A stretch of 64,000 nt of DNA from Ralstonia sp. 25mfcol4.1 (GTDB lineage Bacteria; Pseudomonadota; Gammaproteobacteria; Burkholderiales; Burkholderiaceae). Positions 5,099-33,910 of this stretch are shown here, piece by piece; the first letter of the stretch is position 1; each line of letters starts with the position of its first letter. The position numbers and the translations under genes are program-made. The stretch is from contig NZ_FNJO01000013.1 in assembly GCF_900104095.1 (NCBI RefSeq), forward strand, positions 1 through 64,000, read 5' to 3'. The notes under the pieces are model-generated. The model ran no database searches and was not told the DNA's origin. It saw only the letters and a list, made by a program, of their open reading frames with translations.

Positions 5099-6644
5099 TC
5101 AAAACGGTGCGGCCAGCGTCAGCCGGACGCCTTGCTGCAGCCCGCCCATGCCGAACATCACGTTGTAGTCCATGCCGAACGTCACCGTCCGCGTTCGCAG
5201 CTTGCCACCCAGCCAGACCTGAACGCGGTCGCGGCCGAACGGCGTGCCGTTGACGGTATAGACGCGGCCGGCGCCCAGCAGATCGGCATAGGCCAGGTTG
5301 GCCGCGCTCTGGCCCTCGAAGTCGTGCTGATATTCAACACGCGTAAACGGCAGCAAGGTGCCCCATCGGGTGGGCTGGGTGTACTCGCTGCGCAGGCCCA
5401 CGGTACCCGATACGCTGTTCACCGTTTGGCCGAAGTACGCCAGCGCCCCCATGCCGGCGCCCTCTTCGCTGTACGGGTCCAGCGTGCTGCGGGCAGCCAG
5501 CATGCGTCCATAGGGTGAAATCAGCCAGCGGGTGTCGCGGTACTCGTAGCCCGAGGTGAGCGAGGCGAACCACTGGTGCCCGTCGCGCTTGCCTGCGGCA
5601 AAGGCCGCTTCGTCGGTGACCCAACGGCGCGAATCGAAGCGCAGCGCGCCATAGCCGGCCACGCCGTCGACGAAGTAGGACGGCGTGGGACGATAGCTGC
5701 CATACAGCGCCACGCTGAAGGCGTCGGCGCTGCTGTGGGTGCCAAAGCTACCGATATCGGTGCCATCATGACCATATCCTAGGCCCGCCCCCAACGTCAG
5801 TTGATCCGACACGCGATAGTCCGCGCCCGCCGTGACGCCGCCGGTGTTGAACCTGAAACCCGAGCGCTGCGCGCCAGCGTTAGCGAAACCGAAATCGACG
5901 GTGCCGGCCGTCCAGAATGCGACGCGGGGATCGTCGGCCGAGTCGCCGCCAACCGCCCCTGGAGAGCCGGGGAGCTCTGGTAAGCGGAGCGCCGGAATGG
6001 TAGCCGGATGACCAGCCGTTCCCTCGCTGGCCTGCCGTGCGCCTGCCGGTACGTCCGGCTGGCCGCCCGCTGCCGCCACCGGTTGAAGCGGTCCTCTTTG
6101 GGCGGTGCCCCCCGCCAATGCCATGCGTTCACCGTCGGCCCCACGTGAGACCGCAGCGCCGCGCAGGCAATCGTCACGGGCGACGAGGCCCTCGACGCCC
6201 TGGCATGTACGCGAGTCCGCGCCGTCCATGCGCGGCAGCGCGACGTTCATCGTATTGCGAAACGCCGGGCGGCCCCCGCTATGCAGTTGCTCCAGGCGCT
6301 GGTTGTAGTTGCTGATCTGCGCGGTGGCAAAGCGGCGTGCCGCCTGGATTTGCGCATTGATCAAACCCGAGACATCGGGGTCCGTCGACGGGTCGCGCCG
6401 CTCGGCCACTGTGATCGTCAAGATCGCCGGCGCCGATGTGGCCACGGCGTTGCTGATCGTATACGTGACGACAGCGGTGCCGGCAAACGCGGCAGCCGGC
6501 GTGAACGTGACGACGTAGTCCCCGCCCGACGATGCCGGGCCCATCTGGCTGGCGGATAACATGGGCTTCCGCGCGGCACGCTGGCTCACTGTTGCCTCGC
6601 CCGCATTCGCTGGCACCACCGACACCACGCTGACACCCGTGAAC
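5099..6644 (-). pseudogene. Autotransporter, C-terminal half (split by the transposon)
   Basis: This is the distal part of a gene whose proximal part is at 33906-37185. The frame enters from the transposon junction at 6644 (PFTGVSVVSVVPANAG), passes another bacterial Ig/cadherin-like segment (YVVTFTPAAAFAGTAVVTYTISNA) and a linker. It ends in a ~270-residue autotransporter beta-barrel (from about DPRVAFWTAGTVDFGF) that finishes ...TLAAPF, with the terminal Phe expected of BAM substrates. The barrel would sit in the outer membrane and export the Ig-repeat passenger. Without the signal peptide, now 27 kb away, this half cannot be secreted. Any ATG within it (e.g. 6628) is incidental. Confidence 0.88.
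6640..6644. repeat. Target-site duplication TGAAC (left copy)
   Basis: The 5 bp abutting the left GGGG end of the transposon are TGAAC, identical to the 5 bp abutting the right end at 33906-33910. Five-bp duplications are the rule for Tn3-family insertion. Confidence 0.93.
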
Positions 6645-6712
6645 GGGGTGCCCTTGATATTGCTGCAGTTTGCCGGGATAGCGACCCCGCGTATTCATGC
6701 GGGTTTCCGGGC
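6645..6712 (+). repeat. Left terminal inverted repeat of the transposon
   Basis: Begins GGGGTGCCCTTGATATTG and pairs, read inward, with the right end. About 51 of 68 bp match; the inner block GCGGGTTTCCGGGC (6699-6712) is identical in both ends. Tn3-family ends are usually ~38 bp, so the inner conserved block is an unusual extension. Confidence 0.88.
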
Positions 6713-6868
6713 AACCGCCAACACGATAGTCATGTAAATCAATGGGTTACTGACTCAAGATTTTGAATGTCGGAAGTGCCATATGAGGCATGTACTAGGC
6801 GGCTCATTGCGTCTCAGTCTTCTTGCCGTTAATCTCGGCGGTCCGTCTACCGCTTGGGAGAAAGCGCG

Positions 6869-9808
6869 ATGGATCACTGGCAACTGGCGTATCTCGGCAT
6901 GCGACAGATGCCGCGCGAGCTCAGCGAGTTCGAGCTCGCCACTTTCTTCACTTTCTCTCCCAAGGAGCGCGCCCTGATCGACGCACGGCGCAGCTATCCG
7001 TACCGGCTGGCCTGCGCCGTCCATATCGGCTTTGTCCGTATGACCGGCCGCACTCTTGACGCCTCCAAGCAGGTTCCGAAATTTCTCTGGGCATATGTTG
7101 GCGCCCAACTCGGCATCACGCCACCGGATATGGGCACGCTGAGCGCCCTGTATGACGGGCGGACCGACACGCTGGTGGACCATCAGATGCTCGCCTATCA
7201 GGCGCTTGGTTTCCGCCCGATGGCTGAGCATCAGCGACGCTACGTGACGCGTTGGCTCAAAGAGCGCTTAGCGGGACAACCTAGTCGCAGTGACATGCTG
7301 CACGAACTGAAGCGGTGGCTGTACGAGCATCGTGTTCTGATCCCGCATGACCGTGCGCTGAAACGCCTCATTAGTCAGGCCGTGGAGGTTTCCGAGGCGG
7401 CATTGACCGACGCGTTGGTGCTCGCCTATGGCGAGGCATCGCTTGATTCTTGGGGGGCCTTGCTACCTCGCCCGGAAGGCAGTCAAGCAAGTCTGCAGCA
7501 ATGGCTGTGGGCGGTTCCATTGCGCAGCTCCACGCATCAAATGGGGGAGCTGTTTGACAAGATCGAGCGGCTGTACAAGTTGGGCATCCAACGTCGCTGG
7601 CCGGCGGTCTGCAACGAGGCGGTCGTACGGCACTACGCGAGACGTTGCGCCAATCGACCGGCCTCGGTCAGCAAACGCGTGGTGCAACAATCCCGCCGCC
7701 TGGAAACCGCTTGCTTTTTGCGCTATGCCTTGTGTGCCGCCACGGACCAGATGTCGTCCATGCTGCGCCACTGGATTCGCAAATCCGTCAACGACGCAGG
7801 ACGGCTCATCGACGCTGGCCGACCGGATCCAGACATCCAGCTGCGAGAATTTGCGGCAGCCGTCAAAGGGCTCATCGCCGATGACACGCTCACGCGAGAA
7901 ACGCTCTGCCAACAATTGGATGCGTTGGCCGACGCCGCAACGAGCCAGCATCACCTGCGAAGCCGTGCCAGCATGATCCGTGAGCAGCTGCTGTCTCGGC
8001 ATAGGCTTGCGAGAGCCATGCTGGGCAGGCTGGTCCAGCTGCCATTCGCCACGCAGTCCGCCCATCCAGTGATAGAGGCAATGGAGATCTTGCGCAGTCT
8101 CTATGCGCGGAAGGCCAATTGGCTACCAAATCGGGTTGCCGTGCGCTTCGGGCGAGTCTGGCAGCCAGTATTGGAGGGGCAGGACCGTAAGCGAGCACTG
8201 GCCGCCTTCGAATGGGGAACGCTGTTTGCCCTGCGGGTGGCGCTACGCAATGGCTCGGTATTCCTGGATCACAGCTTCGCCTTCCGCAGCCAAGCAACCA
8301 TGCTGATATCCGGCCAGGATTGGCAGGCGCGGCGCAACCACTTCTATGGCCATCTCAAACTGCCGCAGGACGCAAGAGCATTTTTGGATCCGGTGGTCGC
8401 GCACCTCAATGCGGGGCTCGCCCGGCTGCGAGATGCCGCCGTGCGGGGCGAGTTAAGGATCGATAGCGCCATCCATGTTGATCCACTCAAGGCGAAGCGG
8501 CCCGAAGCTTCGGTCGAGGCCCTGCGGCGCGCGCTGTTTGACAGGCACCCAGACGGACAACTGCCCGAAATTCTTCTGGAGATCGACAGCCACACGCATT
8601 TCAGTTGGCTTCTGCTGGGGCGAGAACCGTATTCTCGCAGCGAGTTGCTCATGATCTATGCCGCGGTGCTCGCGCACGGGACCTCAATGTCTGCGGCGGA
8701 CCTCGCTCGCATGGTGCCGGAACTGTCACCAAGCGCGATTCGTCAGATGATGCATCGTATTGCGGACGAGCGGAAACTGCGTAAAGCCGCTGATTCAGTG
8801 CTTGCCTTCATGCATCAGCATCCCATCGCCCGACATTGGGGGCGCGCCGAGTTGGCGTCTTCCGACATGATGTCCCTGGAGACGACGCGCTCGGTCTGGC
8901 AAGCGCGGGCTGACCCGCGTCGGCGTACCGCGTCGATTGGGATGTACACCCATGTCCGCGACCGGTGGGGCATCTTCTACGACCAGCCAATCCTCCTGAA
9001 TGAGAGACAAGCCGGCGCCGCCATCGAGGGCGTGATTCGTCAGAATGGCGGGGAAGACGTGACGCAGCTCGCCGTTGATACCCACGGCTACACCGACTTC
9101 GCCATGAGTCTGTCACGGCTGCTCGGCTTCGATCTCTGCCCGCGACTCTCTCATCTGCGTGATCGCCGGCTGCATGTACCCAAAGGCCATGCAGTTCCGC
9201 CAGAACTGGCCGCAGTAGCGGACGCCGATGTCCGTCTGGTATTGATCGAACTTGCCTGGGATGAACTGGTCAGGATTGCGGCATCGGTCCAGACCGGCCA
9301 ATGCACGGCGGTGCAGGCGTTGACACGTTTTGGCGCGGCGGCAAGGGGGCAACACGTGTATGAGGCGGGGGTGCACCTGGGACGGCTATTCCGTACGATT
9401 TTCCTCGTCGACTATTTCACGAACACCGCGTTCCGCCAGGAGATGCAGCATGCCTTGAATCGCGGCGAGGCTGTGCACACCGTCCAGCGGGCCATCCACT
9501 ACGGAAAAATCCCCTTGGAACTGGCTCGGCATGATGCGTCGCTGGCAGCGGTCTCGTCTTCGTTGACGCTGTTGACCAATGCCGTGATGGCCTGGAACAC
9601 GCTGCACATGCAGCAGGCTCTGGAGGCGATAGAGGCCATCGGCGGCGAATCCATGCGCGCCGAAGACCTGCGCCAGATTGCGCCGACTCGTCTGGAAGGC
9701 ATCAACTTGCGTGGTACTTTCGATTTCCCGATTGATCGCTACGCGCACCGGCTACTGCCGAACGCAACAAGCGTGCGGACCATACCGCCGACGTGGCGTA
9801 CGGCATGA
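6869..9808 (+). CDS. tnpA: Tn3-family transposase, 979 aa
   Basis: Catalyses replicative transposition of the surrounding element. The N-terminal part (MDHWQLAYLGMRQMPRELSEFELATFFTFSPKE) is the DUF4158 DNA-binding region; the C-terminal DDE_Tnp_Tn3 domain carries D666 (ASSDMMSLE), D737 (AVDTHGYTD) and E867 (LNRGEA), so the catalytic triad is complete. Length is normal for the family. ATG 6869 is chosen because GGGAG lies 8 nt upstream; the TTG at 6854 has no such site. It starts ~220 bp inside the left end and reads inward. No resolvase follows it; resolution may rely on the recombinase at the other end. Confidence 0.93.
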   Translation: MDHWQLAYLGMRQMPRELSEFELATFFTFSPKERALIDARRSYPYRLACAVHIGFVRMTGRTLDASKQVPKFLWAYVGAQLGITPPDMGTLSALYDGRTDTLVDHQMLAYQALGFRPMAEHQRRYVTRWLKERLAGQPSRSDMLHELKRWLYEHRVLIPHDRALKRLISQAVEVSEAALTDALVLAYGEASLDSWGALLPRPEGSQASLQQWLWAVPLRSSTHQMGELFDKIERLYKLGIQRRWPAVCNEAVVRHYARRCANRPASVSKRVVQQSRRLETACFLRYALCAATDQMSSMLRHWIRKSVNDAGRLIDAGRPDPDIQLREFAAAVKGLIADDTLTRETLCQQLDALADAATSQHHLRSRASMIREQLLSRHRLARAMLGRLVQLPFATQSAHPVIEAMEILRSLYARKANWLPNRVAVRFGRVWQPVLEGQDRKRALAAFEWGTLFALRVALRNGSVFLDHSFAFRSQATMLISGQDWQARRNHFYGHLKLPQDARAFLDPVVAHLNAGLARLRDAAVRGELRIDSAIHVDPLKAKRPEASVEALRRALFDRHPDGQLPEILLEIDSHTHFSWLLLGREPYSRSELLMIYAAVLAHGTSMSAADLARMVPELSPSAIRQMMHRIADERKLRKAADSVLAFMHQHPIARHWGRAELASSDMMSLETTRSVWQARADPRRRTASIGMYTHVRDRWGIFYDQPILLNERQAGAAIEGVIRQNGGEDVTQLAVDTHGYTDFAMSLSRLLGFDLCPRLSHLRDRRLHVPKGHAVPPELAAVADADVRLVLIELAWDELVRIAASVQTGQCTAVQALTRFGAAARGQHVYEAGVHLGRLFRTIFLVDYFTNTAFRQEMQHALNRGEAVHTVQRAIHYGKIPLELARHDASLAAVSSSLTLLTNAVMAWNTLHMQQALEAIEAIGGESMRAEDLRQIAPTRLEGINLRGTFDFPIDRYAHRLLPNATSVRTIPPTWRTA

Positions 9809-10191: not shown

Positions 10192-12615
10192 TCAAAGCTT
10201 CGTATTGCGTAATCGCAGAGCATTCGCGACCACTGAAGCAGAGCTCAGGCTCATCGCCAGCGCGGCAATCATGGGGGACAGCAACATTCCGGTGGAAGCA
10301 TACAACGCGCCGGCAGCTAGAGGAACACCGAAGGCGTTGTAGATAAACGCAAAACCGAGGTTCTGCTTCATATTTCGAATCGTGCTTTCGGACAACTGTC
10401 GAGCCCGAGCGATGCCCCGCAAATCCCCTTTTACAAGGGTAATCTGAGCGCTGTTCATGGCGACATCTGTGCCGGTTCCCATTGCAATGCCGACATCGGC
10501 CTTCGCGAGTGCCGGCGCATCGTTGATGCCGTCTCCTGCCATCGCCACAACCTTCCCTTCCGATTGCAGTTCCGTGACGAGCGCCAACTTGTCCGCTGGT
10601 TTAACTTCTCCAAAAATTTCGCCAATGCCGAGCTTCGCGGCGACCGCTCGGGCAGTTGCCACACCGTCGCCGGTCGCCATGACAACATGAATGCCATCGT
10701 CCCTGAGACTCGCGAGGGCCTCAGATGTCGTAGGCTTCACTGGATCTGACACGGCGACAATTCCCGCAAGGGTCCCGTCCACAGCCAAGTGCATAACACT
10801 GGCGCCCTGGGCGCGCAGCGCGTCAGCGTCTCCCGTCAGCGCGGCGATGGACACGCTCTCTTCTTGCATTAAAGTCGTGTTGCCCAGGGCAAGCTTGCGG
10901 CCGGCAACCATTCCACGCACGCCGATGCCAGTCCCCGACTCAAAGCCTTCAGCCTTTTCGATCGCAAGGCCGCGCTCTCTCGCGGCAGCGACAATGGCAG
11001 TCGCAAGAGGGTGCTCGCTACCCTGGTCGAGGCTTGCCGCTAGCCTGAGCACCTCGTTTTCGCTAAATCCATCTAGTCCGATCGCGCGGTCGAATGCTGG
11101 CCGACCTTCAGTTAGCGTGCCGGTTTTGTCGACAATCAGCGTGTCAACTTTCCGAAGGTTTTCGATAGCAGCGGCGTCCCGGAACAAGACGCCATTCGAT
11201 GCGCCTTTTCCGCTCGCAACCATGATCGACATCGGCGTGGCCAGACCCAATGCGCAAGGACACGCGATAATGAGGACGGATACTGCGTTGATGAGGCCAA
11301 ACACCCAGCCAGGCTCGGGCCCGAAGAGCCCCCAGACGAATAGTGTCAGCAACGCAATACCAATGACGGCCAGTACAAACACGCCGGATACCTGATCGGC
11401 CATGCGCTGCATGGGTGCGCGGGACCGCTGCGCCTGAGCCACCATCTGGACAATTTGCGACAGGACAGTCTGCGAACCCACCTTCTCGGATTTGATGACG
11501 AGACTGCCCGTGGTGTTCATCGTGGCACCGATGACGTGGTCACCAACCCGTTTGGTCACCGGAATTGGCTCCCCGGTAATCATCGACTCGTCCAGGGAAC
11601 TCGAACCTTCGGTGACCACGCCGTCGACAGGCACTTTTTCTCCCGGACGAACTCGCAGCATATCTCCCACGTGTACGTGCGTCAGGGGAACATCCTCCTC
11701 CATGCCATCCGGTCTGATGCGGCGCGCGGTCTTGGGTGCCAGGCCCAGCAAGGACTTGATAGCCGCCGATGTCTGGCTACGCGCCTTGAGCTCGAGAAGC
11801 TGTCCCATTAGCGTGAGGGAAATGATGACCGCTGCGGCCTCGAAATAGACACCAACTCGCCCGTGCTCGCTGAAGGCATCCGGAAACGCGCCGGGCATGA
11901 CGGTAGCGATAACGCTGTAGATGTATGCGGCACCGGTGCCCAGTCCGATGAGCGTCCACATGTTCGGACTGCGATTGATGAATGAGCGGGCGCAGCGTTC
12001 AAAAAACGGCAGGCCGGCCCACAGCACCACAGGGGTCGCCAACGCCAACTCGACCCAACTCTGTGTAGTGGCATCCATCCAACCCAGCCTGTGGCCGAAC
12101 ATCGCCAAAATGAACGCAACGACCGTAAGAGGCAACGTCCCCCAGAAGCGGCGACGAAAGTCGGTGAGCTCGGGGTTTTCCTCGTCGTCCAGCCCGGGCA
12201 TCAGCGGCTCGAGGGTCATGCCGCACTTGGGGCAGTTGCCCGGATGATCCCACCGGATTTCGGGATGCATCGGGCAGGTATATATGGTGCCCGCTGGCGC
12301 TGGCACACCCTCTGCTCGCGCAGCGGTTTGGACAAACTTCCCCGGTTCGGCTTGAAACTTGGACTCGCACGAAGCACTGCAGAAATAGTATGTCGCGCCT
12401 GCAAGCTCCAGATGAAATTCTGAGTCGGCTGTCACGGCCATACCGCATACTGGGTCTTTTAGCGCGGCCGGCCCGGCAGTTTCGGAGGGATGATGGGCGG
12501 TCCGGTGACCATCCCTGCTAGGAGAATGGTCGTGCAAATGACCGCCCGCATCGTGAGAACAGCCGTTGTGGTTGTCTTCTCCGGCATGTGAAGCGGCTGC
12601 CTTATTACGGTCCAT
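10192..12615 (-). CDS. copF: Copper-exporting P1B-type ATPase CopF
   Basis: Pumps Cu(I)/Ag(I) from cytosol to periplasm using ATP. The N-terminus is His-rich ([23 protein letters not shown]). A YHS domain follows (DPVCGMAV, ~55-100) and then a heavy-metal-binding domain (YTCPMHPEI...[10 protein letters not shown], ~112-140) instead of classical HMA repeats. The membrane core has the CPC motif (ACPCALG, ~450), TGEP, the phospho-Asp in DKTGTLTEG (~494), SEHPLA and [10 protein letters not shown]. Length of 807 aa and architecture match CopF of Cupriavidus metallidurans. GAGGAG lies 8 nt before the ATG. It is separated from copD by a 114-bp gap that may hold its own promoter. Confidence 0.92.
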
Positions 12616-12729: not shown

Positions 12730-13653
12730 TCATCCCTCGGGAGACAGTACGCCTAAAAACGCTACCACCGTAACAACAAACAAGCCAATCGCAAGTTCGG
12801 CAAGCAGGCTTCTACGTAGTGCATCTGCCGCGACCGACGCGGTTGGGGAGTCCACTTCCGCAGCGAGCCTTGGCACTAACCGATATCGGTTCATGGTAGC
12901 CATGCCCACCATGACCACGAAGAACGCGAGCTTCGTCGACAGGAAAATGCCATAGGGCGTGACAGCTACTGCCATCGACGGCACCCCGGCAATGAGCCAA
13001 TAATTTGCCACACCGGTGACGACGAGGGTCACAACTATTATGCTTCCCAATTTGGCGAAGTCGTTCCCTGTCCGCGCTAATAGCCTTAACGGCACGGTAC
13101 CAGCCCGAGCTGACCGTGCGAGCATCACAAACGCTACCAACGCGCCCACCCACCCTCCAGCAGCCAGAAGGTGTGCCACATCGACCAGCAGGTGTATGAC
13201 GCGGAGATTGCCGTCATCCATTGCGCCGTGGCCCGCCCACGCCAAGGTGGACAATGCCACTGCGCCAGTAAGTGCCAAGGCGGAAACCTGCATGACCGGC
13301 CACCTCCGCAGAGCGATCGCACCGGCGATATAGAGGCTCAATGCGACCAGGCGAGCAACCCAGGCGATACCAAAGTCCGTGCCCGCGATCATCATCTCGA
13401 AGACGTGAGCGCTCAGCTCCGAATACGCGGTGGCACCTGTCATGGATTTCGCCATGACCGCCATGCCGACCAGTGATAAACAAATGCCCGCAACACAGGC
13501 CACAACAGACCATCTGATATACCGGCAGGCGACTTCCGAACGCAACTCATTTCGGCGCAATGAGTAGCCCGCGAAGAGCGGCAGGCCGAACACCAACATC
13601 AAGTCCAGATACAGGAGGAGCCGCACCAGGATACTTTGCCATTCGACCTGCAT
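12730..13653 (-). CDS. copD: Copper resistance inner-membrane protein CopD
   Basis: A 307-aa polytopic protein with about eight membrane segments (e.g. LLLYLDLMLVFGLPLFAGY, VVACVAGICLSLVGMAVM, LAELAIGLFVVTVVAFLGVL) and periplasmic-side His/Met residues (FEMMIAG, HGAMDDG, VDVAHLLAAGGW). The CopD family works with CopC to pass copper across the inner membrane. It starts 4 nt after the copC stop, so it is translated from the copABCD message. No sign of truncation. Confidence 0.9.
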   Translation of the reverse strand: MQVEWQSILVRLLLYLDLMLVFGLPLFAGYSLRRNELRSEVACRYIRWSVVACVAGICLSLVGMAVMAKSMTGATAYSELSAHVFEMMIAGTDFGIAWVARLVALSLYIAGAIALRRWPVMQVSALALTGAVALSTLAWAGHGAMDDGNLRVIHLLVDVAHLLAAGGWVGALVAFVMLARSARAGTVPLRLLARTGNDFAKLGSIIVVTLVVTGVANYWLIAGVPSMAVAVTPYGIFLSTKLAFFVVMVGMATMNRYRLVPRLAAEVDSPTASVAADALRRSLLAELAIGLFVVTVVAFLGVLSPEG

Positions 13654-13657: not shown

Positions 13658-14044
13658 TCATTTCACTTTAAAGTTCACAACGCCGTTGACCGGGTGCGTA
13701 TCCGACGAAACCGCGCGCCACTCCACACGGTAGCTACCCGCGACGAGCGGGATTTTGGGCATAATGACCATTGTCTTCGGGTCGTCCGCACCCGAAACCG
13801 AAGCGGCAACCTTCATGGGCGCGTGATCACTCATGCCCGGCATGCCTGTCATGACAAGGCTCGCGCCGGAGAATTGCTTGGTTAGATTCTCGGAGAATTG
13901 AAGTTCGATTTTCTGCGGCGCCGGTCCTTCCGTGCCATCGGCCGGCGTCGAACTGACCAGCTTGGGATGGGCAAATGCGGCGGCGCTGGCAAGAAGCGTC
14001 GCAACCGCGAGGAGGGGCTTTGCTGCTGACATGATGGACTTCAC
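13658..14044 (-). CDS. copC: Periplasmic copper-binding protein CopC
   Basis: A 128-aa precursor. The signal peptide ends ...ASAAAFA and the mature chain begins HPKLVSSTPADG, the N-terminal His that is a Cu(II) ligand in CopC. The second ligand set is in SSDTHPVNG near the C-terminus, and a Met-rich loop (MTGMPGMSDHAPM) fits the Cu(I) site. GTG 14044 is chosen because AAAGGAAG lies 5 nt upstream; the nearest ATG is four codons further in and too far from that site. It is followed almost directly by copD. Confidence 0.9.
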   Translation of the reverse strand: MKSIMSAAKPLLAVATLLASAAAFAHPKLVSSTPADGTEGPAPQKIELQFSENLTKQFSGASLVMTGMPGMSDHAPMKVAASVSGADDPKTMVIMPKIPLVAGSYRVEWRAVSSDTHPVNGVVNFKVK

Positions 14045-14075
14045 TGGACTTCCTTTGAAGTTGGGGGCTGAATTA

Positions 14076-17029: not shown

Positions 17030-17109
17030 TAGTGCTTCCTTAGACACTTCATTCGCTCCAGTGGAATGGAGCAACGAACACAGGTTAGGGAAAGCGGACT
17101 AACCTTGGA

Positions 17110-21851: not shown

Positions 21852-21886
21852 ACGCTTGCCCTTCCGGATTGCCGATGAGTAGCGTA

Positions 21887-21917
21887 ACGTTACTTCCGTA
21901 CCTAAGTACGGAGTCAA
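21887..21917 (-). promoter_or_regulatory. mer operator and PmerT
   Basis: On the minus strand: -35 TTGACT (21912-21917), a 19-bp spacer holding the perfect dyad CCGTAC-N4-GTACGG (21896-21911) and -10 TAACGT (21887-21892). The over-long spacer with a central dyad is the diagnostic MerR-activated promoter; Hg-MerR unwinds it to start merTPA. Confidence 0.92.
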
Positions 21918-21922
21918 GCGGT

Positions 21923-24273: not shown

Positions 24274-25575
24274 ATGTCATTTCCACGTTGCCTAAGGCTG
24301 GCGCTTCTGTATGCGTCCGCCCTCGGCATGACGGTGTCGCTTGCCGCGTCGCCGTCTGCCGCACCCGCCCTATCCATTGAAGAAGCCGCAGCGCTGGCAA
24401 CGGCGCATGCGAACGACGCCGAGAATTCGCACGGTGCCATCGAAGCGGCTGTGCAACAGGCAGTCGCTGCCGGCCAGTTGCCCGACCCCGTACTCAAGGT
24501 TGGTCTGAATGATGTGCCCGTCAATGGGTCCGACAAGGGTTCGCTGAGTCGAGATTCCATGACCACTCGCTCGATCAGCGTATTGCAGGAATTCACGCGC
24601 GCAGACAAGCGACGCGCGCGCACCGCGCGCTTCGAAGCCGAATCCGCTTCCGCCGATGCACGGCGCCTGGTCGGTGTGACCAATGTCCAACGCAACGCCG
24701 TGGCCGCGTGGATCGATCGCTGGTACGCAGAGCAGGCGGCCGCGCTGCTTGGCCACCATTCCCATCCTTTGAGCCTGGCGCTGGAGGCTGCCAATGCGGC
24801 CTACCGCAGTGGCCGCGGCACGCGTGCCGACGTGCTGTCTGCGCAATTGGAAGTGCAGAAACTGCGCGACCGTGAAGGGGAGAATCAGGCGGCGCTCGAC
24901 ACTGCCACCGTCAATCTGTCGCGTTGGATCGGCACCGACGCCGCACGTCCGCTGGGCGAGCGTCCTGCGCTGATCGTACCGGAGCGCGTCGAGCAACTCA
25001 TCCGTACGCGCTACGACGGGGTGCCGGAGATCGTCGCAGCCCAGCGTGACGTTACCCTTGCGGAGAGCGAAGTGCGCGTGGCGGACGAATCACGCAAGCC
25101 CGATATCTCTGTCGAGTTGATGTATAGCCAGCGTGGTTCGGCTTACTCCAATCTGGCATCGGTCAACGTGAGCTTTCCGCTGCCGTGGGATCGCACCAAC
25201 CGGCAAGATCGTGAAGTGTCCGCGCGACTCGCACAGGCCACGGAGGCGCGCGCCAAGGCCGAGATCATCCAGCGCAATACGGACGCAGCAGTCGGTGCGC
25301 GCCTTGCCGAATTGCGCCGCAACCTGGAGCGCCTCAAGCGTTATGACGACGCCACGTTGCCGCTTGCCAATGCACAGGCAGAAGCCACGCTGACGGCCTA
25401 TCGGGCCAATACCGGTTCGCTGCTGGCCGTGGCGGAAGCCAATCACCGTGCCATCGATACCGCATTGGAGCGGCTGGCGCTGGAGCAACGCACGACAAAA
25501 CTCTGGGCTGAGCTCACTTTCCTGACGCCCCTGCCGACCGCACAGACCGAATCTGCCACCAAGGATTTCAAATGA
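24274..25575 (+). CDS. silC: Outer-membrane factor SilC/CusC (TolC family)
   Basis: A 433-aa TolC-family channel with a signal peptide (LALLYASALGMTVSLAASPSA). Two outer-membrane-efflux repeats follow: long heptad helices such as AAAWIDRWYAEQAAAL and a second set around DREVSARLAQATEARAKAEI. It forms the outer-membrane exit duct for SilBA. GGAGG at 4 nt favours ATG 24274 over 24250. No lipobox Cys was seen, unlike E. coli CusC. Its stop overlaps silB as ATGA, so the efflux genes are translationally coupled. Confidence 0.88.
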   Translation: MSFPRCLRLALLYASALGMTVSLAASPSAAPALSIEEAAALATAHANDAENSHGAIEAAVQQAVAAGQLPDPVLKVGLNDVPVNGSDKGSLSRDSMTTRSISVLQEFTRADKRRARTARFEAESASADARRLVGVTNVQRNAVAAWIDRWYAEQAAALLGHHSHPLSLALEAANAAYRSGRGTRADVLSAQLEVQKLRDREGENQAALDTATVNLSRWIGTDAARPLGERPALIVPERVEQLIRTRYDGVPEIVAAQRDVTLAESEVRVADESRKPDISVELMYSQRGSAYSNLASVNVSFPLPWDRTNRQDREVSARLAQATEARAKAEIIQRNTDAAVGARLAELRRNLERLKRYDDATLPLANAQAEATLTAYRANTGSLLAVAEANHRAIDTALERLALEQRTTKLWAELTFLTPLPTAQTESATKDFK

Positions 25576-27098
25576 CTCGACTGAAAATCGCCGCGGCGTG
25601 CCTGGTGCTGATCGGCGCGGCCGGATTTGCCGGCTATCGCTTCGGTGTTTCGCAAGGAGCGTCGGACATGCCAGCCAAACCGGAGACGGGTGCGACATCG
25701 AAAACCGGCGATGTCGATCCGCAGACGGGTAAGAAGGTTCTCTACTGGCACGACCCGATGGTGCCGGGCCAGCGCTTCGACAAGCCGGGCAAATCGCCTT
25801 TCATGGACATGCAACTGGTACCGGTCTATGCCGATGGCGACGGTTCAGGCGGCAACGGGGTCTCCATCGACAGCCGTGTGACCCAGAACCTCGGGATCCG
25901 CACAGCGGAGGTGAAGGCCGCACGCATGGGCACAGTGCTTGAGGCACCCGGCAATGTGGCGATTGACGAGCGCAGCATCCAGGTCATTCAGGCGCGCACC
26001 GGCGGCTTCATCCAGCAATTGGGCGTGCGGGCCACGCTCGACCCGGTACGAAAGGGTCAGACATTGGTCACCCTCTACGCCCCCGACTGGGTGGCGGCAC
26101 AGGAGGAGTACCTGGCCGTGGCGCGAATGCCCCAAGGAGTACAGGGCGACCTGACGGAGGCCGCAAAAGCGCGCATGCGGCAAGCCGGCATGACGCCGGG
26201 CCAAGCCGATGCAGTCGCCCGTTCCGGCAAGCTGCAGACCGGCCAGGGCATCTCCAGTCCGCTGGACGGCGTGGTTACCGAGATTGCGGTACGCGAGGGC
26301 ATGACGGTCAGCGCTGGTATGACACTTTTCAAGTTGGCGGATCTTGCGCGGGTATGGGTGATTGCCGAAGTACCCGAGGCCCAGGCGCGCGGCATCGCAC
26401 CCGGACAGTCCGTTACGGTATTGGCCACCGCCGCGCCGGAACCCGTAAGCGGCAAGGTCGATGCGATCCTGCCCGACGTCAATCCAGCCACGCGCACCCT
26501 CAAGGTCCGCATCGTACTGCCCAACAAGCAGCGCCGGTTGGTGCCCGGTATGTTTGCCAACGTGCGGTTCGACAGCGGTGATCGCCAGGACGTCCTGCAG
26601 ATTCCATCCGAGGCCGTGATTCGCACCGGCCAGCGTAGCGTCGTCATGGTCGATGCGGGCTCCCAGGGCTACGTGAGCACCGAAATCCGCACAGGCCATG
26701 AATCCGGCGGCATGACTGAAGTCCTTTCCGGACTGCAAGCCGGGCAAAAGGTCGTGACCTCGGGCCAGTTCCTGATTGATTCCGAAGCCAGCCTGCGCGG
26801 CACATCGGACCGACTGGCATCGCCGGCCGGTGCGTCCGCGCCCGCCGCAGCTGCGTCGGAGCATGAGGGTGCCGGTCGCATCGAAGCCGTAAATGCTGCG
26901 GGTCTAACGATCTCGCACGGACCGATTCCCTCGGCACAGTGGGGCGCCATGACGATGGATTTTGCGGCAAGTAATGCGGCAATGCTCAAGGGGTTGAAAC
27001 CGGGCGATCGCATCCGGTTCCGCTTCCGCCTGAACCGGGACGGTGCAGCTACACTATCGTCGGTACAGCCGGCTGGCGCCGAAGGAGCCAAGCCATGA
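25572..27098 (+). CDS. silB: Periplasmic adaptor SilB with fused CusF-like domain
   Basis: A 508-aa membrane-fusion protein. The N-terminal signal anchor ([19 protein letters not shown]) leads into a heavy-metal-binding segment ([28 protein letters not shown], ~55-85). The alpha-hairpin/lipoyl and beta-barrel adaptor domains follow (~100-400). The chain ends in a CusF-like domain (~430-505) containing [16 protein letters not shown], with the Trp-Met-Met metal site intact. A C-terminal CusF-like fusion is the hallmark of C. metallidurans SilB. ATGA overlaps link it to silC and silA. Confidence 0.92.
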
Positions 27099-30000
27099 TC
27101 GCGCGCATCATCCTGGCGTCGATACGCAACCGCTTCCTGGTGCTGCTGGCCACGGTCATGCTCACCGCGTGGGGGTTGTGGGCGGTGCGCAGTACACCGC
27201 TCGACGCGTTGCCGGATCTGTCCGACACGCAGGTCATCATCCGCACGCCGTTCCCAGGCCAGGCGCCGCAGATTGTCGAGAATCAGGTCACCTACCCGCT
27301 CACCACCACGATGCTGTCCGTGCCGGGGGCCAAGACCGTGCGGGGCTACTCGTTCTTCGGCGACTCGTTCGTCTACGTCCTGTTCGAGGACGGCACCGAT
27401 CCGTACTGGGCGCGCTCCCGCGTGCTGGAGTACCTGAATCAGGTGCAGTCACGCCTGCCGGCCGCGGCCAAACCGGCACTGGGACCGGATGCCACCGGCG
27501 TGGGCTGGATCTACGAGTACGCGCTAGTGGACAAGACCGGACGGCACGACCTCTCACAGTTGCGTGCGCTACAGGACTGGTTCCTGCGCTTTGAGCTGAA
27601 GTCACTGCCTAACGTCGCCGAGGTAGCGCCCATCGGCGGCATGGTGAAGCAGTATCAGGTCGTATTGCAGCCGGATAAGCTGCGCGCCTACAACATCCCT
27701 CAGGCCAAGGTCCTAGAGGCGTTGAAGGGCGCGAACCAAGAGGCCGGAGGCTCTGTTCTCGAGCTTGGCGAGGCCGAGTACGCGGTGAGGGCATCGGGGT
27801 ACCTGAAGACGCTCGATGATTTCCGGCAGATTCCGTTAATGACTAGCGAAGCGGGCATCCCCGTTCGGCTCGGCGATGTGGCCACGATCCAGTTTGGTCC
27901 CGAGTTGCGGCGCGGTATTGCCGAACTCAATGGTCAGGGCGAGGTCGCTGGCGGTGTCATCGTGATGCGCTCGGGTAAGAACGCACTGGAAACCATCGAG
28001 GCGGTCAAGGCCAAGCTCGCCACGCTACAGAAGAGTCTGCCGGCCGGCGTCGAGATTGTCACCACCTACGATCGCTCCTCCCTGATCAATCGCGCCGTGG
28101 AAAATCTGACGCACAAGCTGATCGAAGAGTTTATCGTCGTCGCGTTGGTCTGCCTGGTCTTTCTCTTCCACCTGCGTTCCGCTTTGGTGGCCATCGTATC
28201 GCTGCCGCTCGGCGTGCTGGCAGCATTCCTCGTCATGCGATATCAGGGCGTCAATGCCAACATCATGTCGCTGGGGGGCATCGCCATTGCCATCGGCGCC
28301 ATGGTCGATGCCGCGGTTGTCATGATCGAGAACGCGCACAAGCATCTGGAACACTGGCATGCGGACAACCCCGGGCGGGACCTGACAGGCCATGAGCGCT
28401 GGCGCGTGATCGGCGAGTCGGCGGCCGAGGTGGGACCCGCGCTGTTCTTCTCGCTATTGATCATTACGCTGTCGTTCATCCCGGTGTTCACGCTGGAGGC
28501 GCAGGAAGGCCGGCTATTTTCGCCGCTGGCCTTTACGAAGACGTACTCGATGGCCGCTGCCGCTGGCTTGTCGGTGACCTTGGTGCCAGTCCTGATGGGC
28601 TATATGATCCGGGGCAAGATTCCCAGCGAGCAGTCCAATCCGCTCAACCGATGGCTGATTCGCGCCTATCAGCCGATGCTGGCCAAGGTACTCACCTACC
28701 CGAAAACCACGATCGCAGTTGCGGCAGTTCTGCTGGTCGCGACCGCCTGGCCGATTATGCGAATTGGCGCAGAGTTCATGCCGCCCCTCGATGAGGGTGA
28801 CCTGCTCTACATGCCTTCGGCACTGCCGGGGCTGTCCACCGGCAAGGCGGCGCAGTTGTTGCAACAAACTGACCGCCTGATCAAGACTGTGCCAGAGGTA
28901 GCCACCGTGTTCGGCAAGGCGGGCCGCGCAGATTCGGCGACCGACCCGGCGCCCATCGAGATGTTCGAGACCACGATCCAATTCAAGCCCCGCGACCAGT
29001 GGCGCGCCGGCATGACGCCGGACAAGCTGGTGGAGGAGCTCGACCGCGTGGTGAAGGTGCCCGGCCTGTCCAATATCTGGGTGCCGCCAATCCGCAACCG
29101 CATCGACATGTTGGCCACCGGCATCAAGAGTCCGGTTGGCATCAAGGTGGCGGGTACTGACCTGAAGGAGATCGACCGGTTGTCCACTCGGATCGAGGAA
29201 GCCGTCAAGGCGGTGCCGGGTGTCACATCGGCGCTCGCCGAACGTCTGTCCGGCGGGCGCTACATCGACGTCGATATCGACAGGATGGCGGCCGGGCGGT
29301 ACGGGCTCAACATCGATGACGTGCAGAGCATTGTGTCGTCTGCCATCGGCGGCGACAACGTGGGGGAGGTGGTCGACGAATTAGCGCGCTATCCGATCAA
29401 TGTCCGCTATCCACGCGACTACCGCGACTCGGTGGAGCAATTGCGCGCCCTGCCCATCGTCACCGGCAGGGGCCAGCAGATTACCCTTTCTGACGTGGCG
29501 CGCCTTGCGGTGGTGCAGGGCCCACCGATGCTGCGCAGCGAAAACGCCCGCCTGTCCGGCTGGATATACGTGGACATTCGCGGACGCGATCTGCGCTCCG
29601 CCGTCCAGGACATGCAAGCGGTGGTGGCGAAGGCGGTGCCGATGCCGGCGGGCTATTCCCTCAGTTGGTCGGGGCAGTTCGAATACCTGGAGCGGGCCAC
29701 CGGGAAGCTGAAGGTAGTGGTGCCGTTCACGCTGTTGATCATCTTCGTGTTGCTCTACCTGGTGTTCGGTCGCCTGGACGAAGCGCTGCTCATCATGGGC
29801 ACGCTGCCGCTGGCGCTCATCGGCGGCTTCTGGCTGCTCTATGCGCTGGGCTACAACCTCTCTGTGGCCGGCGTCGTCGGCTTCATCGCCCTGGCCGGCG
29901 TCGCAGCCGAGTTCGGTGTCATCATGCTGCTCTACCTGAAGCAAGCCTGGAGCGAACGCGAGGCCCGAAGCGAAACTAGCGTGTCCGCACTGCTAGATGC

Positions 30001-30265
30001 CATCCAGGAAGGTGCGGTGCAGCGGGTGCGTCCCAAGGCCATGACCGTCGCGGTCATTCTCGCCGGCCTAATTCCCATCATGTGGTCGCATGGCACCGGC
30101 TCGGAGGTCATGCAGCGCATTGCCGCCCCGATGGTCGGCGGCATGGTCACCGCGCCATTGCTTTCCCTGTTTGTTGTGCCGGCGGTGTACCTGCTGATGC
30201 GCAGACGCCAGACCAAACCTGTCCCACTTTCCACCCACCCTTCACTTCAGGAGGAATCACAATGA
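27095..30265 (+). CDS. silA: HME-RND Cu(I)/Ag(I) efflux pump SilA/CusA
   Basis: A 1,056-aa proton-driven transporter of the heavy-metal RND class. It has the twelve-helix RND plan with the proton-relay Asp in [25 protein letters not shown]. Substrate methionines equivalent to the CusA relay are visible in [27 protein letters not shown] and [13 protein letters not shown], which supports monovalent rather than divalent metal specificity. Full length, with no frame breaks. Couples to silB and silF by ATGA overlaps. Confidence 0.94.
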
Positions 30266-30615
30266 AACACGTCAAGAGTCTCGTAATCACGCTTGCACTC
30301 GCTGCCGCCCCCACCGCGTTCGCGGCCGGATCCATGGACGGCATGGACATGAAAGGCATGGACATGAAACCGTCAGCCGCATCGCAAAAGGCGCCGCAGC
30401 CTGTTGCGGCGGAGGTCAAGAATATCGATGCGAAGGCCGGTAAGGTAACGCTTAAGCACGGCCCGATCGAAAATCTCGGCATGCCCGCCATGGTGATGGC
30501 GTTTCCGGTCAAGGACCGCGCTTCGCTGAAGAACTTCAAGGACGGTGACGCGGTATCAGTGACGTTCGACAACGTCAATGGCGCGCCGACCGTCGTAGAT
30601 ATGCAGCACAAATAA
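30262..30615 (+). CDS. silF: Periplasmic Cu/Ag chaperone SilF/CusF-like
   Basis: A 117-aa precursor: signal peptide ([15 protein letters not shown]), a Met-rich linker ([12 protein letters not shown]), then the small CusF barrel ([30 protein letters not shown]). Metal-site His and the two Met are kept. The position of the E. coli Trp44 cap (W-P-x-M-x-M) is Met here (M-P-A-M-V-M). GGAGG precedes ATG 30262, which overlaps the silA stop. It is expected to hand metal to SilB. Confidence 0.88.
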
Positions 30616-31139: not shown

Positions 31140-32627
31140 CTATGACACATTGTCTTTAAACGTGGCATCGACGAAGGCCCGCAACTGTGTCAGATCGGTC
31201 CTGGCATAGGCCGCTGTGGTCTGTACGGAGGCGTGGCCAAGCAGCGCCTGGGCGACTGGCAACGGTACCTGGTGATCGACCACCAGCGTGCGGGCATACG
31301 CATGGCGTAGCCAGTGCGGCGACGCGGCGCGCAGCAGCAACGCCTGTGCCGGCTCGCGCGCCTCCAGGCCCTCGGCCACCGCCGCAAAGATCGCCTTGAT
31401 CTCCCGATAGAGGCCGGCCTGCTGCAACGCTTCCCCCTTGCTGCCGTGGATCACGGGCAGCGTCTCATGCGCCGGCGGCTCGGGCGGCAGACCGCGGGCG
31501 TGCCGGTAGGCCCGCAGCACCACCACGCACGACGTCGGCAACGGAATGGCCCGCACCTTGCGTCCCTTGCCGCAGACATAGAGGGTCCACCGCCCGGGCG
31601 CCTCGGCCTCCAGCCGCGGCAGCGCAGTCTCATCCGACCACGCCAGTTCCGCCAGACGCACGCCGGCATAGCGATACAGCGCCCAGATCGCCCGCCGCCG
31701 CAGCATCGGCAACGCATCGTCGGCACGGTTCGCCTCAAGCCAGGCATCGCAAGCGTCCAGCAGCGCGGGCGGGATCAGCCGCGTCGGTGCGAAACCGGTC
31801 CGCGCGCGGCTGCCGGAGGACAGGCCCGCGGCCGGGTTGGCATGCAGGTAGCCGGTCGCGTACCAGTAGCCGTAGAGACTGGCCACCACGGCGAGTGCGC
31901 GCGTGCAGGTCGCTTCTGACAACGGTGGCGAGGCGGCCTCTGTGCCGGGTTCGCCGTGCTGCAACGTGTGCCGGTAGGCGAGCAGTTGCCGGCGCGTCAG
32001 GTCCGACAACGGCCCAAGCCCGTGCGTGCCACACCAGCGCATCAGGCGACGTAGCTCGGCGCCATAAGCGCGCAGCGTATGGCGCGATCGGCCGGTCCGG
32101 TCGCGCAGAAAGAGCGCCAGTGCCTGCGCGTCGTCGACGGCACCCAGCGTGTTGGCGGCGGTCTGCGGCTGTGCGAAGCGCCCGGCGCGCGCGAGCCAAG
32201 GGTAGTCAGCCTGACCGTGCGGGCCCATCCACGGGAGAACTTCCACCCCAGCTTCCGCCAGGCCGGCGGGCGCCGTTTCTGTGTTCCCGGGCGCGCCAGC
32301 GAGCCGGAAGCGGCGGCGGTGCACGTGCAGCAGCCGGGCGAGGACCGTATCCGGGCTGGGCGCCTGGTCCGCCGGGGCGGTGCGCAGGCGTCCGCGCTCC
32401 CAGTACTCGACGGCCCCGTCGTGAGCCAGCAGCAGGGTAAGCACCGCCGGCTGCGCGGCCTTGGCCTCGGCCAGCGATCCGTAGCGGCGCTTGAGGCGTG
32501 TCAGGGTCCAGTGCGCGTAGACCGGATGGCCAAGCGCCTCGGCGAGGTAAGCGAGCGCCGCGTCGACCGTTGCCGGCAGGGGGCGCGGCGGCACCGCACC
32601 GGTATCGATCCAGTCGGCCGGATTCAT
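31140..32627 (-). CDS. Tyrosine recombinase of the transposon, 495 aa
   Basis: A site-specific recombinase. The N-terminal ~150 residues are a lineage-specific extension. A core-binding domain follows (~165-270: DDAQALALFLRDRTGRSRHTLRAYGAELRRLMRW). The catalytic domain has Arg in YAGVRLAELAW, Lys in GKGRKVRAIPL, HWLRHAYAR (HxxR) and LLGHASVQTTAAYA with the nucleophile Tyr. Complete active site. Its ATG overlaps the stop of the KfrA-like gene (ATGA), so both are co-translated. With no serine resolvase in the element, it is the best candidate for cointegrate resolution, comparable in role to TnpS of Tn4651. That role is inferred. Confidence 0.85.
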   Translation of the reverse strand: MNPADWIDTGAVPPRPLPATVDAALAYLAEALGHPVYAHWTLTRLKRRYGSLAEAKAAQPAVLTLLLAHDGAVEYWERGRLRTAPADQAPSPDTVLARLLHVHRRRFRLAGAPGNTETAPAGLAEAGVEVLPWMGPHGQADYPWLARAGRFAQPQTAANTLGAVDDAQALALFLRDRTGRSRHTLRAYGAELRRLMRWCGTHGLGPLSDLTRRQLLAYRHTLQHGEPGTEAASPPLSEATCTRALAVVASLYGYWYATGYLHANPAAGLSSGSRARTGFAPTRLIPPALLDACDAWLEANRADDALPMLRRRAIWALYRYAGVRLAELAWSDETALPRLEAEAPGRWTLYVCGKGRKVRAIPLPTSCVVVLRAYRHARGLPPEPPAHETLPVIHGSKGEALQQAGLYREIKAIFAAVAEGLEAREPAQALLLRAASPHWLRHAYARTLVVDHQVPLPVAQALLGHASVQTTAAYARTDLTQLRAFVDATFKDNVS

Positions 32628-33601
32628 GACTTGTCGCGGCGCTTGGTGCCGGGATTGGTGCCGGGCTTGTGGTCGGGCTTACCGGCCGGCTTGCCGGTCG
32701 ACCGCGGCGCGCGCGCGACCTTGGCGGCGGACGGTGCGGCGGCCAGGGTCGCGCGTAGCAGGTCGTCGAGCTGGGCGCGCTGGCTGGCGGTGACGGCCTT
32801 GAGAGCGCTGGCCTCGCCGACGGCGGTCTGGCGCGCGGCGCGCTCGCTGGCCAGCTCGGTGTCGAGTCGGGCGCGTTCCTCCTCGAGCGCGGCGATGCGT
32901 CGCTCGGCGAATTTGAGTTGCGAGGCCAGTTGCGCGCGCTCGGCGCGCACCGCGTCGCGCTGATGGGCGGTTTCCTGCAGGAGCTGCTTCGACAACGCCT
33001 CGTAGCGCGTCTGGACGGTCGCGACCGCCTCGGCGTGGGCACGCTCGTCCGTCATGACGCGTTCCTGCAGGGTCGCCAGCGTCTTCTCGAATTCGCTACG
33101 GCGTGCGGCCTGCTCGTCGGCCCGCGCATTGGCCGCAGCTTGGTCGGCACAGGCTTCGGCCAATGCGGTGTCGCGCGCGGCAAGCTGCCCGCGGACCTCA
33201 CTGAGTTCCTGGCGTAGCAGTTCGACCCGCATGTCGGCCTCCGCGCGCGCCGTTTGCGCGGCCTCGGCGGTCTGCTGCGCCTCACGCCGAAGGCGCACCA
33301 CGTCGTCCAACTGCACCGCGACGGCGGCCTGCCACAGCGCGCGCATGGCTTCAGCAATCTCGAGAGGGATCTCGGGCAGCGCCAGGTCGGCCAGGCCCGC
33401 GCGCACGACTTCGGCCTCGATCGCGTTGAGCGTGCGCGACAGCGTCGCCGGGTCACCGCCGCCAAGGCGGTCGCGCAGCTTACGCACCGACACCACCCGG
33501 CGAAAGCGTGCGGCCGTGGGCGGCGCCGCGTCGCCGGCCTCGGTCAGCATGGCCAGCACGGTGGCGCGGATCTGGTCGGGCGTGGCGGCAAGGCGGGGCA
33601 T
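32624..33601 (-). CDS. KfrA-like DNA-binding coiled-coil protein
   Basis: A 325-aa protein with an N-terminal KfrA_N DNA-binding domain (MPRLAATPDQIRATVLAMLTEAGD...RKLRDRLGGGDPATLSRTLNAIE). A long Ala/Glu/Arg-rich coiled coil follows (~100-290), with a basic tail (GKPAGKPDHKPGTNPGTKRRDK). ATG 33601 is chosen because the palindromic operator at 33642-33657 must lie upstream of it; the longer frame to 33748 would bury the operator. Couples to the recombinase downstream. KfrA proteins bind palindromes and repress their own promoter; an accessory role in recombination, as for TnpT of Tn4651, is inferred. Confidence 0.75.
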   Translation of the reverse strand: MPRLAATPDQIRATVLAMLTEAGDAAPPTAARFRRVVSVRKLRDRLGGGDPATLSRTLNAIEAEVVRAGLADLALPEIPLEIAEAMRALWQAAVAVQLDDVVRLRREAQQTAEAAQTARAEADMRVELLRQELSEVRGQLAARDTALAEACADQAAANARADEQAARRSEFEKTLATLQERVMTDERAHAEAVATVQTRYEALSKQLLQETAHQRDAVRAERAQLASQLKFAERRIAALEEERARLDTELASERAARQTAVGEASALKAVTASQRAQLDDLLRATLAAAPSAAKVARAPRSTGKPAGKPDHKPGTNPGTKRRDKS

Positions 33602-33641
33602 GGTGGCGGCTGGACGTAAATGTGACCTTATCTTACGCACG

Positions 33642-33657
33642 ATCCTAACGTTAGGAT
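33642..33657. promoter_or_regulatory. 16-bp perfect palindrome, KfrA-like operator
   Basis: ATCCTAACGTTAGGAT is a perfect palindrome 40 bp upstream of the KfrA-like start. Downstream on the minus strand is TAAGAT/ATAAGG, a possible -10, so the site would overlap the promoter. Autoregulation is inferred from the KfrA family. Confidence 0.6.
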
Positions 33658-33837
33658 AGGCATTTTTACGCGATACAAAAAAGGAAAGACAGATAAATCC
33701 AATTATCTTGCCAAAACAGGGCATCGCTCGGGCTCGCCGACGCGCCATCCGGGCCTAGGGACAATCAGGGTTCAAGAGAGGGGACGAAAAGGACAGTCAG
33801 CAAGTGACTGATTTGACTGGGGTATCACGCGAGCGCG

Positions 33838-33905
33838 GCCCGGAAACCCGCACGGATGCTAGGGGTGGCTACCCCGGTAAATTGCTCGGGAATCAAGGGG
33901 GCCCC
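33838..33905 (-). repeat. Right terminal inverted repeat of the transposon
   Basis: Read inward on the minus strand it begins GGGGCCCCCTTGATTCCC. It pairs gap-free with the left end and keeps the inner block GCGGGTTTCCGGGC. See the left repeat for match counts. Confidence 0.88.
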
Positions 33906-33910
33906 TGAAC
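33906..33910. repeat. Target-site duplication TGAAC (right copy)
   Basis: Identical to 6640-6644 and immediately outside the right end. Confidence 0.93.

What the first reader, a model, noticed from the sequence alone, without database searches (positions are those of the whole stretch)
6640..33910. A 27,261-bp metal-resistance transposon split an autotransporter; excision in silico restores a 1,606-aa ORF
Seen directly: GGGG-starting inverted ends at 6645 and 33905, TGAAC on both flanks, and the flanking half-genes on the same strand. Lengths outside the element (3,280 nt with one TGAAC, plus 1,541 nt) sum to 4,821 nt, exactly 1,607 codons, and the junction reads SGGPF-TGVSVV like the preceding Ig-type segment. 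This fixes the element to the base, explains a barrel-less passenger and a signal-less barrel annotated 27 kb apart, and shows a phenotype cost of acquiring metal resistance.
Basis: seen in the sequence. Interest (0 to 1): 0.85.

Follow-up and report, generated by a model that had tools for sequence, protein, structure and literature searches.

The report
Metal-resistance transposon interrupts surface-protein gene
A 27-kb jumping piece of DNA carrying copper and mercury resistance genes landed inside a gene for a large bacterial surface protein and split it in two; a near-identical copy sits elsewhere in another genome of the same genus, and related copies carry other cargo.

Summary
Confirmed. 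A Tn3-family transposon fills 6645-33905 (27,261 bp) with TGAAC on both sides. Aligned as separate pieces to 13 unbroken homologues in the genus, the passenger's last whole native residue and the barrel's first residue lie four residues apart in 13 of 13; the window holds 12 native bases there, so the halves are collinear and in frame. A near-identical copy in genome G021 has its own duplication, TATTG. The insertion is textbook; the vehicle is more interesting. TnpA groups with IS1071 (46%), but the far end carries an overlapping, co-directional KfrA_N-domain/tyrosine-recombinase pair and a palindrome found in 15 of 15 such ends, in 0 of 12 left ends and in 0 of 4 transposase-only copies. It resembles a re-arranged TnpT/TnpS module; function untested. 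Related elements carry chromate/nickel genes (pMOL28, no matching duplication), copper genes, or a peroxidase and chaperones. A phenotype cost is not shown. No same-species empty site was available, and the homologues' neighbourhoods differ.

The parts
6640..6644 (.). target-site duplication TGAAC, left copy
33906..33910 (.). target-site duplication TGAAC, right copy
6645..6755 (+). left terminal inverted repeat, about 110 bp (inner limit approximate; 62 of the first 100 bases match the right end)
33795..33905 (-). right terminal inverted repeat, about 110 bp (inner limit approximate)
6854..9808 (+). TnpA, 984 aa, Tn3-family DDE transposase, IS1071 branch
   Evidence: PF01526 E 2.3e-112; NF033527 837 bits, cut-off 500; 45.9% to IS1071, clade support 100/100
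10192..12615 (-). copper-type P1B ATPase
   Evidence: TIGR01511 583 bits, cut-off 397
12730..13653 (-). CopD
   Evidence: NF033808 285 bits, cut-off 195
13658..14344 (-). CopC (true start probably further in)
   Evidence: NF033814 125 bits, cut-off 95, residues 117-228
14076..15203 (-). CopB
   Evidence: PF05275 E 1.1e-89; no NCBIfam match
15140..17074 (-). CopA multicopper oxidase; lies in the block that differs from the G021 copy
   Evidence: TIGR01480 989 bits, cut-off 479
17187..17897 (+). heavy-metal response regulator (CopR/CusR type)
   Evidence: TIGR01387 342 bits, cut-off 279
17894..19273 (+). heavy-metal sensor kinase (CopS/CusS type)
   Evidence: TIGR01386 465 bits, cut-off 293
19365..21086 (-). 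mercuric reductase MerA
   Evidence: TIGR02053 614 bits, cut-off 454
21211..21498 (-). probable MerP (judged from the printed sequence, not scanned)
21483..21917 (-). MerT
   Evidence: PF02411 E 4.1e-52
21785..22333 (+). MerR-family regulator (listed start probably too early; domain from residue 55)
   Evidence: PF13411, PF09278
24250..25575 (+). outer-membrane efflux protein (CusC type, by position)
   Evidence: PF02321 E 1.8e-26
25572..27098 (+). CusB-type adaptor
   Evidence: NF007303 283 bits, below its cut-off of 390; TIGR01730 138 bits, above its cut-off of 94.9
27095..30265 (+). CusA/CzcA-family RND pump
   Evidence: TIGR00914 1364 bits, cut-off 701
30082..30615 (+). CusF copper-binding protein (domain in residues 107-175; listed start too early)
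   Evidence: PF11604 E 2.5e-24
31140..32627 (-). XerC-like tyrosine recombinase, 495 aa; R, K, HxxR, H and Y motif residues picked out by eye (motif recalled)
   Evidence: PF00589, PF02899; sequence
32624..33748 (-). KfrA_N-domain protein, 374 aa, overlapping and co-directional with the recombinase gene
   Evidence: PF11740 E 4.8e-17
33794..33810 (.). palindrome CAGTCA-N5-TGACTG at the inner edge of the right repeat; candidate resolution core or KfrA_N-protein site
   Evidence: only copy in the window, 0 in 100 shuffles; module-bearing right ends 15/15, left ends 0/12, transposase-only copies 0/4
33906..37185 (-). 5' part of the autotransporter gene: N-terminus and Ig-like passenger (ORF 33859-37185 runs on into the element)
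5099..6639 (-). 3' part of the autotransporter gene: end of passenger and beta-barrel (ORF 5099-6628)

Best explanation
A Tn3-family transposon of the IS1071 branch, carrying copper, Cus-type efflux and mercury resistance genes, transposed into an intact autotransporter gene of a Cupriavidus genome. It duplicated 5 bp and separated the passenger from its barrel. Shown: ends, duplication, collinearity of the halves with unbroken homologues, and a second copy of the element at another site with another duplication. Inferred: TnpA moves it by replicative transposition; the KfrA_N-domain protein and the tyrosine recombinase resolve the cointegrate at a site near the right end; the surface protein is no longer displayed, because one half has no barrel and the other no signal sequence.
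For: Ends and TGAAC duplication. In 13 of 13 unbroken homologues passenger residue 1093 and barrel residue 1 lie 4 residues apart, matching the 12 native bases in the window. A copy in G021, 27,143 of 27,260 aligned bases identical, has duplication TATTG, and G021 has no match to either half. Full-length TnpA with complete DDE domain. Both halves are free of stops up to the junction, which fits a recent event. The host genome has no other match to either half, so no close spare copy.
Against: No same-species genome without the element was available (one genome per species). The homologues are only 53-57% (passenger, next to the break) and 61-69% (barrel) identical and sit in other neighbourhoods, so they test the gene's architecture, not the ancestral locus. 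Resolution by the recombinase pair is not shown; no BLASTP similarity to Tn4651 TnpT or TnpS was found.
Confidence: 0.95

Rival explanations
1. The two halves were already separate genes and the element merely sits between them.
For: No syntenic empty site was seen; the frame match alone has a 1-in-3 chance.
Against: Perfect 5-bp duplication at the break; 13 of 13 homologues are single genes with the same spacing across the break; the truncated passenger frame ends on element-derived codons.
Confidence: 0.02
2. The junctions are an assembly artefact in a draft genome.
For: The own assembly has 44 contigs, and the related G021 copy shows an N at an apparent scaffold join.
Against: An artefact would not give a 5-bp duplication at exactly the ends of an element that has the same ends in another genome.
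Confidence: 0.02
3. The KfrA_N/tyrosine-recombinase pair is cargo with another role (for example stabilising the island) and not the resolution module of the transposon.
For: No BLASTP similarity to TnpT or TnpS of Tn4651; gene order differs from the divergent tnpS/tnpT pair of PMC7157771 (passages); transposase-only relatives occur without it, so TnpA lineages exist that lack the pair.
Against: The same two domain families as TnpT and TnpS. The pair abuts the right inverted repeat; 17 of the 18 genomes with a match of at least 2 kb to it also hold a match of at least 2 kb to the TnpA end (hand count on the lists; G053 is the exception).
Confidence: 0.3

Closest known systems
IS1071 (Tn3 family, IS1071 branch)
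   Same: Closest named TnpA seen (45.9%, clade support 100/100). Repeats of about 110 bp and 5-bp duplications in IS1071 are recalled, not measured here.
   Different: IS1071 is a transposase-only element (recalled); this one carries a recombinase pair at the far end and about 20 kb of cargo between.
chr-cnr segment of pMOL28, C. metallidurans CH34 (part of CMGI-28a)
   Same: Same kind of TnpA end (92.6% protein identity) and of KfrA_N/recombinase end in the same orientation, enclosing 23.2 kb. A table in PMC7019866 describes CMGI-28a as mer, cnr and chr genes flanked by IS1071 elements (passages); the CH34 genome paper lists ISRme18, Tn3 family, one copy on pMOL28 (PMC2864759, passages).
   Different: Cargo is chromate and nickel resistance. 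The two ends have no matching target duplication there (TATCT against TGCTC).
Tn4651 with tnpS/tnpT (pWW0)
   Same: A tyrosine recombinase plus a KfrA_N-domain partner; the pWW0 gene taken as TnpT matches PF11740 (E 2.6e-26) and the one taken as TnpS matches PF00589 (the record names them DNA-binding protein and site-specific integrase, so the names TnpT and TnpS are my assignment).
   Different: TnpA lies far away in the tree. In pWW0 the two genes are divergent, with rst between (PMC7157771, passages); here they overlap on one strand. No pairwise BLASTP similarity.
Classical (type Va) autotransporters
   Same: PF03797 barrel at the C-terminus, repetitive Ig-like passenger before it.
   Different: Interrupted by the transposon.

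Membership tests
Tn3 family transposon | Large TnpA with Tn3-type DDE domain | tested here: met
   PF01526 positions 1-389 of 389; NF033527 837 bits, cut-off 500
Tn3 family transposon | GGGG-starting terminal inverted repeats | tested here: met
   28/40 and 62/100 matches
Tn3 family transposon | 5-bp target duplication | tested here: met
   TGAAC here; TATTG in G021; TTCAT in G006; TGATC in G071, G013 and G019 (one shared site); not matching in pMOL28, G048 and G070. Transposase-only copies: matching GCATT in G067, not matching in G008, G062 and G065.
Tn3 family transposon | Replicative transposition with cointegrate resolution | not testable with these tools
   needs an assay
IS1071 branch | TnpA groups with IS1071 and apart from Tn4651 and Tn4653 TnpA | tested here: met
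   split 100/100 in a tree of 11 rows; only three rows on the other side, one on a very long branch, and three transposase-only rows of 498-553 residues
TnpS/TnpT resolution module | Tyrosine recombinase with a KfrA_N-domain partner | tested here: met
   PF00589 and PF11740 in both pairs. KfrA_N in TnpT is a result; [quoted passage not shown]
TnpS/TnpT resolution module | Divergent genes with rst between them | tested here: not met
   Genes overlap on the minus strand; the candidate palindrome lies upstream of the KfrA_N gene. PMC4619425 notes that what lies between tnpS and tnpT varies among elements (passage).
TnpS/TnpT resolution module | Sequence relationship to Tn4651 TnpS and TnpT | tested here: inconclusive
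   BLASTP E 12 and 0.08; shared domains only
Type Va autotransporter | C-terminal PF03797 barrel | tested here: met
   E 1.2e-48
Type Va autotransporter | N-terminal signal sequence | not tested
   A hydrophobic stretch ending AHA is visible; no predictor was run

The most novel reading that the evidence does not exclude
The window element belongs to a so far unrecognised lineage of cargo-swapping transposons in Cupriavidus that pairs an IS1071-type transposase at one end with a re-arranged, co-directional KfrA_N/tyrosine-recombinase resolution module and a right-end-only recombination core at the other. This one scaffold has carried copper/mercury resistance, the chromate-nickel genes of pMOL28, and a peroxidase-chaperone cargo. 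The core also marks where terminal segments are exchanged between copies.
Probability: 0.35. Interest if true: 0.6.

Novelty: new variant of a known kind. Interest (0 to 1): 0.4.

Why it matters
The insertion shows, to the base, how a metal-resistance element reached its present site and what it broke, and it explains two half-genes 27 kb apart. The wider gain is the vehicle. Ends shared by elements with quite different cargoes suggest that several metal islands of this genus, including the nickel/chromate genes of the model strain CH34, travel or travelled on one transposon scaffold, whose presumed resolution system is arranged differently from the three kinds named for the Tn3 family in PMC7157771 (passages).

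Tried and rejected
Synteny of the autotransporter locus: of 13 flanking ORFs tested, one (a TctC-type receptor) was found, in 2 of 13 loci of 19 kb each. pMOL30: its two ends are not convergent and their flanks do not match, so it was not counted as an element. Chance match of the ends: rejected. Rfam: no match at gathering threshold in 4000-38000. Extra repeats in the G021 copy (309 and 252 bp): the second lies at an N and is probably a scaffold join; the first is unexplained.

Own slips, corrected: one search used an outer base one too far for G021 and printed no match; with the right base give TATTG on both sides. One search read 10 of its 15 right ends from the wrong side (minus-strand loci) and so printed 5 of 15; with the right side gives 15 of 15.

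Paper searches: in the listings, and in the passages I read of six papers, I saw no description of this element or of a co-directional KfrA_N/recombinase pair in a Tn3 element. This covers only the held open-access library, those terms and those passages; no paper was read whole. ISfinder and TnCentral could not be searched.

Full report
WHAT WAS CLAIMED AND WHAT IS THERE. The element runs from 6645 to 33905, 27,261 bp, with TGAAC directly before and after it. Its ends are inverted repeats: 28 of 40 and 62 of 100 bases match, and none of 200,000 random pairs of 40-mers from the window matched as well over 40.

THE SPLIT GENE. The minus-strand ORF 33859-37185 has seven He_PIG stretches with Cadherin-like and Big_9 domains and no barrel match; ORF 5099-6628 carries a complete autotransporter barrel. 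I searched the two pieces separately. Among 60 genomes of the genus, own included, 21 match the barrel piece; 14, own included, match strongly (best E below 1e-130) and the other seven weakly. In each of the 13 other strong genomes one frame of 1,112-1,722 codons holds both parts. The passenger's last whole native residue (1093) and the barrel's first residue lie exactly four residues apart in 13 of 13. The window has one native base on one side and eleven on the other there, that is four codons. The halves are therefore collinear and in frame. Identities are 53-57% over the passenger alignment next to the break and 61-69% over the barrel. More distant homologues outside the genus (G030; a Burkholderia contig) were not put into this test. 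The genes around the 13 homologues are not those of the window: of 13 flanking ORFs tested, one, a TctC-type receptor, was found, in 2 of 13 loci. The homologues test the gene's design, not the ancestral site.

THE ELEMENT ELSEWHERE. In G021 the same element lies at C34:98709-126529, flanked by TATTG on both sides. That genome has no match to either half of the autotransporter. Of 27,260 aligned positions 117 differ, and G021 has two extra stretches of 309 and 252 bp. The differences are clustered: 84 lie in 15290-17124, around copA; 24 lie in the 77 bp 33717-33793; 3 lie in the outermost 95 bp; only 6 lie in the rest, about 25 kb. Host DNA was compared only loosely: of a 19.6-kb stretch of the window's flank, G021 matches scattered pieces, the best two at 96% over about 1.1 kb each. 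The element's near identity fits recent transfer but does not date it.

WHAT IT CARRIES. TnpA; a copper P-type ATPase; CopABCD; a metal two-component system; MerA, MerT, a MerR-type regulator and probable MerP; and a Cus-type efflux pump with CusF. At the right end lie a KfrA_N-domain protein and a XerC-like tyrosine recombinase, overlapping on the same strand. The recombinase shows, by eye, the R, K, HxxR, H and Y residues expected of an active enzyme (motif recalled).

THE FAMILY. TnpA groups with IS1071 (45.9%) at 100/100 support, apart from the TnpA of Tn4651 and Tn4653 of pWW0 (11 rows, three on the other side; the two Tn names are my assignment of the annotated pWW0 genes). The TnpA end and the recombinase end recur together: of the 18 genomes of 60 with a single match of at least 2 kb to the recombinase end, 17 also have one of at least 2 kb to the TnpA end (hand count, whose lists are cut at the weak end; G053 is the exception). 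I checked nine convergent pairs of ends. Six have a matching 5-bp duplication: the window, G021, G006, and G071, G013 and G019, which share one site, so four independent sites. Three do not: pMOL28, G048 and G070; in G070 the pair encloses 73 kb and the recombinase end is split. pMOL30 was also looked at: its ends are not convergent. Cargoes differ. pMOL28 has chr and cnr genes between the ends. G048 and the G071 group have a Cus-like pump and a copper ATPase. G006 has a peroxidase (777 aa, two Pfam peroxidase stretches, so probably a catalase-peroxidase), GrpE, Hsp70 and Cpn60. Transposase-only copies of about 3.4 kb with both repeats occur in G008, G062, G065 and G067; one of the four, G067, has a matching duplication, GCATT. 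CMGI-28a of pMOL28 is described in print as flanked by IS1071 elements (PMC7019866, passages), so part of this is known; the recombinase-bearing end is the added detail.

THE RIGHT-END SITE. A palindrome CAGTCA-N(4-5)-TGACTG begins 96-97 bp from the outer edge in 15 of 15 module-bearing right ends that reach the edge among the loci; these are only 7 distinct sequences, nine genomes sharing one. An overlapping set gave 14 of 14, one of them a relic without the genes on own contig C35. It is absent from 12 of 12 left ends and from the whole fetched stretch of 4 of 4 transposase-only copies. It occurs once in the window and never in 100 shuffles. It lies just upstream of the KfrA_N gene. I take it as a candidate recombination core or KfrA_N-protein site; this is inference. 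The dense differences between the two copies of the element stop where it begins, which would fit exchange at this site, but gene conversion explains it as well.

HOW IT COMPARES. PMC7157771 (passages) names three resolvase kinds in the Tn3 family: TnpR, TnpI, and TnpS with TnpT, the last divergent with rst between. The divergent pWW0 pair also consists of a KfrA_N protein and a tyrosine recombinase, so the domains agree. The gene order does not, and pairwise BLASTP finds nothing. PMC4619425 (passages) notes that the genes between tnpS and tnpT vary, so the module is known to be flexible. I call this a variant that probably works like TnpS/TnpT, not a proven member.

NOT SHOWN. A phenotype cost; that the surface protein was made or mattered; that the element still moves; that the recombinase pair resolves cointegrates. 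The genus name Cupriavidus is inferred: same-genus genomes G056, G012, G005 and G010 have contigs with the same lengths and gene positions as contigs titled Cupriavidus pauculus or C. pampae. The species of the window was not determined.

Noticed in passing
2261-4012: A 583-aa tyrosine recombinase (DUF3701 plus Phage_integrase) lies beside the barrel half; own contig C35 holds a related stretch (67% DNA identity) near a different Tn3-family transposase.
   Followed up: partly
L064:11516-11668 (G000:C35:83517-83668): A relic of about 152 bp of a right end of the same transposon family (90% identical), with the palindrome but no further match to the element in the fetched stretch.
   Followed up: partly
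L003 (G000:C16:2258-2413): A short relic of a related tnpA (74% protein identity over 50 residues).
   Followed up: no
15290-17124 and 33717-33793: Two blocks hold 108 of the 117 differences between the window's element and the G021 copy; the second block ends exactly at the right-end palindrome.
   Followed up: partly
L061:10943 and L061:15952: The G021 copy carries extra direct repeats of about 310 and 252 bp in the copper ATPase and copA genes; the second sits on an N and may be a scaffold join.
   Followed up: partly
L094 and L095 (G006:C10:172830-195918): A sister transposon with duplication TTCAT carries peroxidase, GrpE, Hsp70 and Cpn60 genes; no metal gene was among the eight cargo ORFs scanned.
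   Followed up: partly
L083 (pMOL28 41546-64707): The chr-cnr genes lie between one TnpA end and one recombinase end of this family, without a matching target duplication; the right flank is the same as in G070, which suggests later rearrangement at the left.
   Followed up: partly
L101 (G067:C297): A transposase-only relative of about 3.4 kb, both repeats present, with a matching 5-bp duplication GCATT.
   Followed up: partly
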